Shown one piece after another: positions 2,021-52,344 of a stretch of 64,000 nucleotides of DNA (its first letter is position 1; every line of letters begins with the position of its first letter). A program made the position numbers and the translations under genes. This stretch comes from Prauserella cavernicola. Its GTDB lineage: Bacteria; Actinomycetota; Actinomycetes; Mycobacteriales; Pseudonocardiaceae. The DNA lies in contig NZ_JAENJH010000002.1 of assembly GCF_016595675.1 (NCBI RefSeq), positions 806,001 through 870,000 of the forward strand. The letters run 5' to 3'. The notes beneath the pieces are model-generated. The model made no database searches. It worked only from the letters and a program-made list of their open reading frames with translations, and was not told the origin of the DNA.

Positions 2021-2079
2021 GATGCGGTGAAGGGCACCTTTACTGCGTTGAACGCACGTAAGGTGCCCTTCACCGCATC
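2021..2079. repeat. 59-base palindromic element, copy 1
   Basis: Perfect 20-base arms (2021-2040 and 2060-2079) around a 19-base centre that contains its own small palindrome TGCGTT-G-AACGCA, with three unpaired positions between the outer and inner stems. It sits between two convergent genes (stops at 2009 and 2100), which fits a bidirectional terminator, although no T-tract follows. Three further copies occur at 8221, 12415 and 28205. Confidence 0.9.
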
Positions 2080-7388: not shown

Positions 7389-8219
7389 ATGGCTGTGAAA
7401 CTGGGAAAGTACGGAATCTGGCGGGGCGCTGGCGGGCTCACTCCTGAGCTGGCCGTCGAGGTCGAGAAGCTCGGTTACGGCGCCATCTGGATCGGCGGTT
7501 CGCCGCCCGCCGACCTCGAGCTCGCGGAGAGCCTGCTCGACGCGACCCAATCCATCGCCGTGGCCACGGGCATCGTCAACATGTGGGCCACCGACGCCGC
7601 GACGGTGGGAGCCGCCTACCACCGGGTCGTGGCCAAGCACCCGGACCGGTTCCTGCTCGGCGTCGGCGTCGGCCATCCCGAGGCCACGGCCGATTACCAG
7701 AAGCCCTACGACAAGATCGTCTCCTACCTCGACGAACTCGACGAGGCCGGCGTGCCCAGGGACGGCCTCGTGCTCGCCGCGCTCGGCCCGAAGGTGCTCA
7801 AGCTCTCCGCGGAGCGCGCCGCGGGCGCCCATCCGTACCTGACCACGCCGGAGCACACGCGCCAGGCGCGCGAGCTGCTCGGCGCCGACGTTCTGCTGGC
7901 CCCCGAGCACAAGGTGGTGCTGGAAAGCGATCCGGCGCGTGCCCGCGAGATCGCCCGTCCGCCGATCAACATGCCCTATCTCAACCTGCGCAACTACGCC
8001 AACAACCTGCGCAGGCTCGGCTGGGACGACTCGGAGATCACCGACGGCGGCAGCGACCGGCTCATCGACGCGCTCGGCCTGCACGGCGACGCGCAGACGA
8101 TCGCGCGCGGGCTGAACGCCCACCTCGAGGCCGGCGCCGACCACGTCTGCCTGCACAACCTGCCCGACGACGCCGATCCGCTCCCGACGTACCGAGCGCT
8201 GGCCGCAGCGCTGTTCTAA
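7389..8219 (+). CDS. LLM-class F420-dependent oxidoreductase, TIGR03620-like
   Basis: Luciferase-like TIM-barrel oxidoreductase, 276 residues. The opening KLGKYGIWRGAGGLTPE and the strand GYGAIWIGGSPPADL, then ATGIVNMWATDAATV and RFLLGVGVGHPE, are typical of the actinobacterial F420-using subgroup rather than FMN luciferases. Start ATG 7389 is chosen over the in-frame ATG at 7374 because the family N terminus begins there. Transcription probably ends at the palindromic element that begins 1 base after the stop. Substrate not predictable. Confidence 0.82.
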   Translation: MAVKLGKYGIWRGAGGLTPELAVEVEKLGYGAIWIGGSPPADLELAESLLDATQSIAVATGIVNMWATDAATVGAAYHRVVAKHPDRFLLGVGVGHPEATADYQKPYDKIVSYLDELDEAGVPRDGLVLAALGPKVLKLSAERAAGAHPYLTTPEHTRQARELLGADVLLAPEHKVVLESDPARAREIARPPINMPYLNLRNYANNLRRLGWDDSEITDGGSDRLIDALGLHGDAQTIARGLNAHLEAGADHVCLHNLPDDADPLPTYRALAAALF

Positions 8220-8220
8220 A

Positions 8221-8279
8221 ACTGCGGTGAAGGGCACCTTTACCGCGTTGAATGCAGTAAAGGTGCCCTTCACCGCAGT
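8221..8279. repeat. 59-base palindromic element, copy 2
   Basis: Perfect 23-base arms (8221-8243 and 8257-8279) around a 13-base centre with a weak inner stem. It starts 1 base after the stop of the LLM-type gene and lies 66 bases before fba, in a tandem rather than convergent intergenic space. The innermost arm bases differ from copy 1 but remain paired. Confidence 0.92.
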
Positions 8280-12414: not shown

Positions 12415-12471
12415 ATGCAGTGAAGGGCACCTTCCCCGCGTTCAACGCGGGAAAGGTGCCCTTCACTGCAT
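12415..12471. repeat. 59-base palindromic element, copy 3
   Basis: Outer arms of 19 bases (12415-12433 and 12453-12471) enclose an inner stem CCCGCGTT-C-AACGCGGG that is itself a perfect palindrome, so almost all of the element pairs. One outer pair is A-T where the other copies have G-C (TGCAGTG versus TGCGGTG, changed on both sides). It separates two convergent genes (stops at 12403 and 12494). Confidence 0.92.
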
Positions 12472-27037: not shown

Positions 27038-28201
27038 ATGGTCGAGTTCCCACACTTCCCCGGCCCCTCGCGGCGCGCCGACGTGGCGCCCTTCCACGTC
27101 ATGGAGGTCCTCTCCGCGGCGCAGGCCAGACAGCGCAGCCACGGCGACGTGGTCTCGCTCTGCGCGGGCCAGCCCACGGCGGGGGCGCCGAAGCCCGTGC
27201 TGGAGGCGGCGCGGCGTGCGCTGGGTGAAGGCGACCTCGGCTACACCGTGCAGCTGGGCATCCCCGAGCTGCGCGAGGCGATCGCCGGTCACTACGAGCG
27301 CACCTACTCGCTCGAGGTCAGCCCGCAGGACGTGATCGTCACGACCGGCTCCTCCGGCGGGTTCCTGCTCTCGTTCCTGGCGGCCTTCGAAGCGGGCGAC
27401 CGGGTGGCGATGGCGCGGCCCGGCTACCCCGCCTACCGCAACCTGCTGGCCGCGCTCGGCTGCGAGGTCGTGGAGTTCACCACCGACGAGCACACGCGCT
27501 TCCAGCCCACCACCGACCTGCTCGACGAGCTCGGCCCCATCAAGGGGCTCATCGTGGCCAGCCCCAGCAACCCGACCGGCACCGTGCTCCCTCCCGGCGA
27601 ACTCGCCGCGATCGCGGGTTGGTGCTCGTCGCACGGCGTGCAGCTGATCAGCGACGAGATCTATCACGGCATCTCGTACGAGGCCGAACTCGGCTGCGCG
27701 TGGCAGACCTCGACCGAGTCGCTGGTGCTGGGCTCGTTCTCCAAGTACTTCGCGATGACGGGCTGGCGGCTCGGCTGGATGCTCGTGCCGCAGCGGCTGC
27801 ACCGCGCGGTCGACGTGCTCACCGGGAACTTCAACATCTGCCCGCCCGCGCTGGCCCAGCGCGCGGCCGTAGCGGCGTTCACGCCGGAGTCCTACGCCGA
27901 GCTCGACGGGCACGTCGCGAACTACCGGACCAACCGGGACCTGCTGCTGAAGGGCCTGCGCGACCTCGGGTTCGACCGCGTCGCACCCGTCGACGGCGCG
28001 TTCTACGCCTACGTCGACGTCTCCGCCCACACCGACGACAGCCTCAGCTGGTGCCAGCGGCTGCTCGCCGACACGGGTGTGGCGATCACGCCGGGCATCG
28101 ACTTCGACCCGGTCGAGGGCGGCCGTTTCGTCCGGTTCTCCTTCGCGGGCGCGGAGTCCGAGGTCGCCGAAGCCATCCACAGGCTCGCCACCTGGCTCTG
28201 A
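27038..28201 (+). CDS. PLP-dependent aminotransferase, fold type I (class I/II)
   Basis: A 387-residue aminotransferase of the aspartate-aminotransferase family. Visible: substrate-end SLCAGQP, GYTVQLGIPELREAIAGHY, PLP-phosphate TTGSSGGF, Asn178 in SNPTG, Asp206 and Tyr209 in SDEIYHG, Schiff-base Lys236 in GSFSKYFAMTGWRLG, and the carboxylate-binding Arg in RFVRFSFA. Amino donor and acceptor cannot be assigned; it could act on alanine, aspartate or aromatic substrates. Preceded by a TACCCT box at leaderless spacing; a palindromic element starts 3 bases after the stop. Confidence 0.92.
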   Translation: MVEFPHFPGPSRRADVAPFHVMEVLSAAQARQRSHGDVVSLCAGQPTAGAPKPVLEAARRALGEGDLGYTVQLGIPELREAIAGHYERTYSLEVSPQDVIVTTGSSGGFLLSFLAAFEAGDRVAMARPGYPAYRNLLAALGCEVVEFTTDEHTRFQPTTDLLDELGPIKGLIVASPSNPTGTVLPPGELAAIAGWCSSHGVQLISDEIYHGISYEAELGCAWQTSTESLVLGSFSKYFAMTGWRLGWMLVPQRLHRAVDVLTGNFNICPPALAQRAAVAAFTPESYAELDGHVANYRTNRDLLLKGLRDLGFDRVAPVDGAFYAYVDVSAHTDDSLSWCQRLLADTGVAITPGIDFDPVEGGRFVRFSFAGAESEVAEAIHRLATWL

Positions 28202-28204
28202 AGA

Positions 28205-28263
28205 ACTGCGGTGAAGGGCACCTTTACTGCATTGAACGCGGTAAAGGTGCCCTTCACCGCAGT
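28205..28263. repeat. 59-base palindromic element, copy 4
   Basis: Perfect 23-base arms (28205-28227, 28241-28263), identical to those of copy 2, around a 13-base centre that differs from copy 2 at several positions. It begins 3 bases after the aminotransferase stop and ends about 140 bases before the next gene on the same strand. Confidence 0.92.
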
Positions 28264-52302: not shown

Positions 52303-52344
52303 CCACAAGGCTCCCGATTCGGGGTCGAATCGGGAGCCTTGTGG
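52303..52344. terminator. 18-pair perfect stem-loop terminator
   Basis: Perfect 18-base arms (52303-52320 and 52327-52344) around a 6-base loop GGGGTC, 24 bases after the stop of the GH25 gene on the minus strand. It should stop transcription of that gene before it reaches the membrane-protein gene at 52170. Confidence 0.85.

What the first reader, a model, noticed from the sequence alone, without database searches (positions are those of the whole stretch)
8221..8279. Four-copy 59-base palindromic element always just after a stop codon
Copies at 2021-2079, 8221-8279, 12415-12471 and 28205-28263 share a stem of 19-23 perfectly paired bases (core TGAAGGGCACCTT) around a short centre, and lie 1-11 bases after a stop codon (two of them between convergent genes). 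Four near-identical palindromes in 64 kb, none within a gene, suggest either a family of strong terminators spread by copying or a REP/MITE-like element that inserts at gene ends. None has a T-tract.
Basis: seen in the sequence. Interest (0 to 1): 0.75.

Follow-up and report, generated by a model that had tools for sequence, protein, structure and literature searches.

The report
Copied hairpins that end bacterial genes
This bacterium carries over a hundred near-identical DNA palindromes, and nearly all of those examined lie just after gene stop codons, where they probably act as two-way end-of-transcript signals; related species carry them at some of the same places but in their own sequence versions, even inside a respiratory-enzyme gene.

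Summary
Confirmed, and larger than reported. The own genome holds 117 exact copies of one palindrome (0 for the reversed pattern). Of 57 copies examined (56 of these plus one minor variant), 36 lie between convergent genes, 17 in tandem gaps (16 nearer the stop), 1 in a divergent gap; 3 were called inside ORFs, 2 of them real. The architecture recurs in 150 of 390 family genomes, own included (78 with 10 or more copies), in lineage-specific, covarying "dialects". Two same-genus species fill many of the same gaps with other dialects (Fisher 1.6e-6, 7.9e-7); same-site copies are little or no more alike than other cross-species pairs (9.9 vs 10.1; 8.8 vs 10.6). One copy lies in frame in nuoG; at that linker G001/G002 and other genera carry a dialect of their own genome. 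The RAYT transposase domain was not detected in 45 of 46 genomes. Best reading: a RAYT-less, REP/RPE-like dispersed palindrome, tolerated mainly at gene ends, probably serving there as bidirectional terminator or 3'-end hairpin, and homogenised within lineages by an unknown copying process. No transcript data were available.

The parts
2021..2079 (.). palindromic element, copy 1 (55-nt conserved part 2023-2077, centre 2050), convergent gap between a gene ending at 2009 (+; YciI-like, weak hit below cut-off) and an NDMA-dependent alcohol dehydrogenase gene ending at 2100 (-)
   Evidence: G001 and G002 have a type-B element in the same gap
8221..8279 (.). palindromic element, copy 2 (55-nt conserved part 8223-8277, centre 8250), tandem gap after an F420-dependent oxidoreductase gene (stop at 8219) and before a class II fructose-bisphosphate aldolase gene
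   Evidence: G001 and G002 have a type-A (GGCCACC) element at the same junction to within 1 nt
12415..12471 (.). palindromic element, copy 3 (55-nt conserved part 12416-12470, centre 12443), convergent gap; variant inner stem CCCCGC/GCGGGA
   Evidence: G001 (type B) and G002 (type A) occupy the same gap
28205..28263 (.). palindromic element, copy 4 (55-nt conserved part 28207-28261, centre 28234), tandem gap after an aminotransferase-like gene (below NCBIfam cut-off; stop at 28201)
   Evidence: G001 has an element, G002 a shortened remnant, in the same gap

Best explanation
A dispersed palindromic element of about 55 nt, built of two inverted units (GAAGG-NNN-CCTT, 30-nt unit period) around a short centre. 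SHOWN by sequence: it occurs in many copies that share one or a few dialects per genome; of the copies examined nearly all lie at gene ends, most often between convergent genes; its two arms covary between lineages; some gaps are filled in several species while the dialect differs; a few copies lie in frame in genes. INFERRED: new copies appear by a RAYT-independent process (unknown transposase, or template switching/gene conversion through the hairpin). Copies in genes and promoters are mostly removed by selection. Copies just after stop codons are kept because the hairpin ends or protects transcripts from both sides, which a near-symmetric palindrome can do for two convergent genes. Old sites are repeatedly overwritten by the current dialect (concerted evolution), by rewriting in place or by renewed insertion.
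For: 117 exact copies, 0 reversed-control; in G000 32 of 32 AAGGGCACCTT arms in 400 kb belong to full elements. Placement: convergent gaps enriched (10 of 17, 14 of 26, 12 of 18; p 1.8e-5, 5.3e-8, 7.2e-7) and divergent gaps depleted (1 of 17, 0 of 26, 0 of 18; p 0.028, 0.0002, 0.002) in G000, G001, G002; the one G001 copy called inside was left out of the 26. Places fetched from other genomes: 27 convergent, 25 tandem, 0 divergent, 13 called inside, of 65. Whole-element gain or loss: at five gaps relatives have 3-11 nt where others have 48-138 nt with an element; in-frame copies in NuoG and in the AMP-binding domain of an NRPS, in two different frames. Covariation on 40 chosen elements: 12 of 20 pairs with changes on both sides (2 of 500 shuffles as high), 95.8% of cells paired against 75.7% shuffled (0 of 500). 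Shared gaps with little site memory: G000/G001 9.9 differences of 45 at shared sites (n=7) against 10.1 for all cross pairs, G000/G002 8.8 (n=6) against 10.6, within G000 3.5. NuoG linkers carry a dialect of their own genome. Where the orthologue lacks the element, its gene end has stronger other hairpins than control ends, p 0.00016-0.005 in 4 of 7 comparisons (not independent, uncorrected).
Against: No transcript or 3'-end data. No U-tract. The hairpin-substitution test was not significant in the 3 of 7 comparisons that start from G000 (p 0.13-0.35). Mismatches in tandem copies show no clear G.U excess on the gene strand (28 against 18 A.C pooled; 9 against 8 in G000, 3 against 4 in G001/G002, 16 against 6 in other genomes), so RNA-level selection on the stem is not demonstrated. 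In G212, of 15 family palindromes in 140 kb 2 are in divergent gaps, 1 was called inside and 5 are 98-310 nt from the nearest facing stop. No convincing target-site duplication among 3200 boundary/length combinations; no enzyme found. Three of the seven G000/G001 shared gaps have clearly different junctions (stretch positions 162050, 230365, 238415), which fits repeated insertion as well as rewriting; stop-side distances agree within 2 nt in 4 of 7 (1.3% of shuffles) for G001 but 2 of 6 (53%) for G002. In convergent gaps alone G000/G001 sharing is not significant (p 0.14; G000/G002 0.023). G001/G002, the closer pair, do keep site memory (2.8 against 6.9).
Confidence: 0.6

Rival explanations
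1. Purely selfish palindromic repeat: gene-end placement only reflects removal of copies from genes and promoters; no terminator function.
For: In-frame copies in NuoG and an NRPS; looser placement in G212; no clear G.U bias; patchy presence, 0 copies in the same-genus G003.
Against: Tandem-gap copies are nearer the upstream stop than the downstream start in 16 of 17 own cases; orthologous ends without the element carry stronger other hairpins in 4 of 7 comparisons.
Confidence: 0.25
2. Ordinary intrinsic terminators that became alike by selection at each site, without mobility.
For: Strong hairpins right after stops; unrelated hairpins at orthologous ends.
Against: 117 near-identical copies, lineage dialects, gaps of 3-11 nt in relatives, in-frame copies inside genes; no U-tract.
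Confidence: 0.04
3. Canonical REP/REPIN mobilised by a RAYT transposase.
For: REPIN-like anatomy: two inverted small palindromes, mostly intergenic, up to 480 copies.
Against: Y1_Tnp (PF01797) detected in 1 of 46 genomes and not in 20 of 21 many-copy genomes tested; the control rings in 5 of 14 named genomes. GTAG near the ends in 1 of 17 copies, CGTC in 0 of 17.
Confidence: 0.04
4. Recognition sites of a DNA-binding or DNA-processing protein (array of AAGG-NNN-CCTT operators with 30-nt period; chromosome organisation, palindrome nuclease or homing target), with dialects set by the protein's changing specificity.
For: 30-nt unit period, longer runs of 3-6 units; dialects shared genome-wide; patchy presence between species of one genus.
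Against: The centre of each unit and the inner stem vary freely as long as the arms pair; no protein identified; gene-end bias not explained.
Confidence: 0.05
5. DNA uptake signal used in inverted pairs as terminator (Neisseria/Haemophilus type).
For: Species dialects and gene-end hairpins resemble that system (PMC1852404, passages). In G001 12 of 62 and in G002 23 of 58 arms lie outside the scanned elements.
Against: In G000 32 of 32 arms are in paired elements, none in a gene. Of the outside arms listed in G001/G002 (12 of 12 and 22 of 23) only 2 and 1 are in genes, and most belong to long or shortened forms of the element. 117 copies is far below the >=1,000 given for uptake signals (PMC1852404 passage).
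Confidence: 0.02

Closest known systems
REP / REPIN elements (GTAG-tagged, RAYT-associated)
   Same: Short palindromes, in REPINs as inverted pairs, often >100 copies per genome, mainly intergenic, lineage-specific (starts of abstracts of PMC2817692 and PMC3116915 in listings; passages of PMC3733652; REPIN anatomy partly recalled).
   Different: RAYT domain not detected in 45 of 46 genomes; no GTAG tag; strong bias to convergent gaps and stop codons; gaps shared between species with different dialects.
Rickettsia palindromic elements (RPE) and CGTC-tagged REPs
   Same: Palindromic repeats apparently without a dedicated transposase (CGTC REPs, abstract passage of PMC3733652) and in-frame insertion into unrelated genes (RPE, passages of PMC10969869).
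   Different: 55 nt against about 150 nt; only 2 verified in-gene copies of 57; no CGTC tag; gene-end bias; dialect differs between species at the same coding site.
DNA uptake sequence hairpins of Neisseria/Pasteurellaceae
   Same: Repeated genome-specific sequence in inverted pairs forming gene-end hairpins (PMC1852404 passages).
   Different: No unpaired units in the own 400 kb, longer, fewer copies, inner stem varies with compensation.
Intrinsic and bidirectional terminators
   Same: Strong hairpin shortly after stops, often between convergent genes.
   Different: No T-tract; copied family; dialects; in-gene copies.

Membership tests
REP/REPIN | RAYT (Y1_Tnp) transposase in the genome | tested here: not met
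   detected in 1 of 46 genomes, own genome negative; control rings in 5 of 14
REP/REPIN | GTAG tag at one end | tested here: not met
   GTAG near the ends in 1 of 17 copies
REP/REPIN | many short extragenic palindromes, in inverted pairs | tested here: met
   117 copies of two inverted units; 54 of 57 examined not called inside a gene
RPE / CGTC-REP | in-frame insertion in protein genes | tested here: met
   NuoG and NRPS, but only 2 of 57 copies
RPE / CGTC-REP | CGTC end tag | tested here: not met
   0 of 17
MITE | target-site duplication | tested here: inconclusive
   no convincing flank repeat in 53 copies; no clean recent empty site between G001 and G002 in the mapped gaps
MITE | partner transposase with matching ends | not tested
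   whole genome not available as a file; only PF01797 was searched
Intrinsic terminator | stable hairpin shortly after stop | tested here: met
   -47.2 to -52.1 kcal/mol for the four window copies; 16 of 17 tandem copies nearer the stop
Intrinsic terminator | U-tract | tested here: not met
   none at the four window copies; other copies not tested for it
Intrinsic terminator | ends transcripts in vivo | not testable with these tools
   no RNA data
DNA uptake sequence | abundant single units, also in genes | tested here: not met
   G000: 0 of 32 arms outside elements; G001 12 of 62 and G002 23 of 58 outside, few in genes
Rfam family | match above gathering score | tested here: not met
   0 matches in the window

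The most novel reading that the evidence does not exclude
Pseudonocardiaceae contain an unknown process that rewrites dispersed 55-nt palindromes in place, so that the copies in a genome, including one that encodes part of the NuoG protein, change together to a new dialect while keeping both arms complementary: concerted evolution of scattered short palindromes without a RAYT.
Probability: 0.35. Interest if true: 0.88.

Novelty: new variant of a known kind. Interest (0 to 1): 0.72.

Why it matters
If right, a bacterial family uses a copied palindrome as stock gene-end signal, so terminators there can spread like mobile DNA, and the sequence of a linker in a respiratory enzyme follows the palindrome dialect of the genome. 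It offers a natural system, with hundreds of genomes of known copy number, for finding what spreads and homogenises short palindromes without a RAYT transposase.

Tried and rejected
RAYT dependence: disfavoured (one Pfam model only). Loss of SbcCD as the reason palindromes are tolerated: rejected, SbcD found in 46 of 46. Uptake-signal reading: disfavoured. Target-site duplication: nothing convincing in 53 copies. RNA-strand test by G.U against A.C mismatches: inconclusive. Rfam: nothing in the window. Plasmids and phages: no match to the 59-nt copy. Literature: six 13-mer units were found only in four unrelated papers. Searches for Pseudonocardiaceae or Amycolatopsis palindromes, bidirectional terminators and MITEs (20 of 259, 20 of 696, 12 of 889 and 11 of 11 hits listed) showed nothing on this family in the rows seen. 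The library lacks most subscription journals, so this is no proof of absence from print.

Limits. Gene calls come from my own codon-usage caller, not validated against a published program. The 57 own copies are the ones listed or lying in the 400-kb stretch, not a random draw: 17 (16 of the exact pattern and one minor GGCCACC variant), 37, 3. The three called inside were looked at by hand: L174 (48-codon low-score ORF, taken as spurious), L183 (NuoG), L229 (NRPS). In G001 one call (254074) overlaps its neighbour. In one search, 13 of 65 places were called inside: 3 chance in-gene matches in low-copy genomes (L154-L156), 5 from one array (L150), 2 from another array (L160), and 3 weak or edge calls (L016, L026, L041); 3 of the 65 (L051-L053) repeat G000-G002 sites. 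Many of the 150 genomes have a single match, some by chance; 78 rows have 10 or more (my count of the listing); the reversed control matched once in each of 2 genomes. The 40 elements were chosen by me, and the invariance of AAGG/CCTT is partly forced by the search patterns. The 30 genomes were picked for having copies, so the share of NuoG linkers with palindromes is not a random sample; the G096 linker is longer than the 110-nt background windows. The GC-rich background windows were taken from G000 genes only.

Full report
1. The core word occurs 8 times exactly in the window, two per copy; at up to 2 mismatches there are 10 matches against 0.53 expected. Whole-genome count: 117 places of TGAAGGGCACCTT N{5,35} AAGGTGCCCTTCA in 7.2 Mb, those listed all 45 nt long, and 0 for the reversed control. 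In 53 own copies the conserved part runs from about -27 to +27 around the centre, with little conserved beyond.

2. Placement. In 400 kb around the window G000 has 17 copies (one of them a minor GGCCACC variant): 10 convergent, 6 tandem, 1 divergent. Another 37 copies gave 25 convergent, 10 tandem and 2 called inside, and 3 more gave 1 convergent, 1 tandem and 1 inside: 57 in all, 36 / 17 / 1 / 3. In tandem gaps 16 of 17 copies are nearer the upstream stop than the downstream start. G001 gives 14 convergent, 12 tandem and 1 called inside of 27, G002 12 and 6 of 18. Enrichment in convergent and depletion in divergent gaps are significant in all three genomes. Fetched places from other genomes give 27 convergent, 25 tandem, 0 divergent and 13 called inside of 65. 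Against this, in G212 (480 copies) 15 family palindromes in 140 kb include 2 in divergent gaps, 1 called inside and 5 that are 98-310 nt from the nearest facing stop.

3. A family-wide architecture with dialects. The exact pattern is found in 3 of 60 genomes, own included (G009 2, G021 1). With up to 3 mismatches it is in 124 of 390 family genomes, own included, with 153 and 150 copies in the same-genus G001 and G002 and 0 in G003. A dialect-free pattern (GAAGG NNN CCTT N19 AAGG NNN CCTTC) is in 150 of 390 genomes, own included, up to 480 copies, very patchy within genera; 78 rows have 10 or more; the reversed control matched once in each of 2 genomes. In a draw from the order it is in 15 of 318 genomes outside the family, 14 of them in one other family. 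The family is Pseudonocardiaceae: part of the G009 locus L018 is identical to the named record L020, YIM PH 21723, on a contig of the same length. Forty chosen elements align without gaps; 12 of 20 stem pairs change on both sides and 95.8% of cells pair, against 75.7% after shuffling. Each arm is itself a small palindrome; longer runs keep a 30-nt unit period.

4. Same sites, different dialect. (Positions in this paragraph are in the fetched 400-kb stretches; window position = G000 stretch position minus 160000.) G000 and G001 share 7 of G000's 10 comparable occupied gaps, G000 and G002 6 of 7; G003 has 0 of 9. Co-occupancy is far above chance overall (1.6e-6 and 7.9e-7) and in tandem gaps alone (0.0018 and 0.0056); in convergent gaps it is 0.14 and 0.023. 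Same-site copies of G000 and G001 differ at 9.9 of 45 positions, like all cross pairs (10.1); for G000 and G002 the figures are 8.8 and 10.6; copies within G000 differ at 3.5. Against type-A copies alone the shared sites give 6.7 (n=3) against 7.7 and 7.5 (n=4) against 7.6. The closer pair G001/G002 keeps site memory (2.8 against 6.9). G001 and G002 each hold two types (13 A and 14 B; 7 A and 11 B), and two shared sites changed type between them. At some shared sites the junction is nearly the same (168250, 32769), at others not (162050, 230365, 238415); stop-side agreement beats shuffling for G001 (0.013) but not for G002 (0.53). At five gaps relatives have 3-11 nt where others have 48-138 nt with an element. 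The six mapped G001 sites that my scan found empty in G002 hold long forms (52-57 nt extra between the arms) or shortened forms.

5. Copies inside genes. One own copy lies in frame in nuoG (NF005895, 1197 bits against a cut-off of 802). G001 and G002 have a type-B element in frame at the same codon position; G003 lacks it. Of 38 readable NuoG linkers (39 fetched; 30 chosen for carrying copies), 11 have a palindrome score of 11 or more; 183 background coding windows reached at most 8. The NuoG unit of G152 occurs 146 times in that genome (up to 2 mismatches), two of them in NuoG, and 0-1 times in seven others. The NuoG unit of G148, G187, G155 and G160 occurs 107, 153, 137 and 85 times in those genomes, 21 times in G152 and never in G000; in G148 it is one of at least two dialects. 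So this linker repeatedly carries a dialect of its own genome, by rewriting or by repeated insertion; 27 of the 38 linkers, G003, G022 and G141 among them, score below 11, some with decayed-looking repeats. A second own copy is read in another frame inside the AMP-binding domain (residues 676-695 of the 576-947 match) of an NRPS.

6. Mechanism. Hairpins of -47.2 to -52.1 kcal/mol right after stops, facing both genes in convergent gaps, fit termination or 3'-end protection. Where the orthologous end lacks the element, other hairpins are stronger than at control ends in 4 of 7 comparisons (p 0.00016-0.005), but not in the three that start from G000 (p 0.13-0.35). Lack of a U-tract and lack of a clear G.U excess (28 against 18) speak for caution. 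The spreading enzyme is unknown: the RAYT domain was not detected in 45 of 46 genomes, SbcD was found in all 46, and no convincing target duplication was seen.

7. Known kinds. What I saw in print: one passage of PMC12306157 (of the six names searched only 'Actinomycet' occurs, once, in a table), passages of PMC3733652 including its abstract, passages of PMC10969869, PMC2267715 and PMC1852404, and starts of abstracts of PMC3116915 and PMC2817692 in search listings. It works like a REP/RPE-type repeat that may do a terminator's job. It fails the RAYT and tag tests for REP, the tag test for CGTC-REP, and the U-tract test for a canonical terminator, so I file it as a new variant rather than as a member.

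Noticed in passing
46 family genomes: A second SbcD match over the cut-off is present in 12 of 20 low-copy genomes of genus g15 but in 1 of 14 high-copy ones, which could mean a palindrome nuclease limits the element; in genus g31, however, high-copy (G098, G099) and zero-copy (G101, G102) genomes all have two, and kinship confounds it.
   Followed up: partly
G001 and G002 stretches, e.g. L079 (G001:C1:73655-73739) and G002:C1:135823-135908: Long forms of the element with typically 52-57 nt extra between the arms (own small stem CGTCTCC/GGAGACG); the same insert also occurs beside a type-B arm (G002:C1:378963).
   Followed up: partly
L150 (G098:C1:120-282), L040, L160, G148:C1:3767625-3767791: Runs of 3-6 palindromic units with an exact 30-nt period, i.e. 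ten codons, which keeps a reading frame.
   Followed up: partly
L229 (centre at 2048 of the locus; G000:C22): In-frame copy inside the AMP-binding domain of an NRPS, read in a different frame from the NuoG copy.
   Followed up: partly
G470, G679, G546, G664, G415 (another family of the order): Few copies of the same architecture with centre GTTAACGC..GCGTTAAC, so the design reaches beyond the family.
   Followed up: no
window 52303-52344: An unrelated perfect 19-nt inverted repeat with a 4-nt loop in the gap between two minus-strand genes, probably an ordinary terminator.
   Followed up: no
G000:C22:659868 (L056, position 13868): A single own copy of a minor GGCCACC dialect among the GGGCACC copies of the 400-kb stretch.
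   Followed up: no
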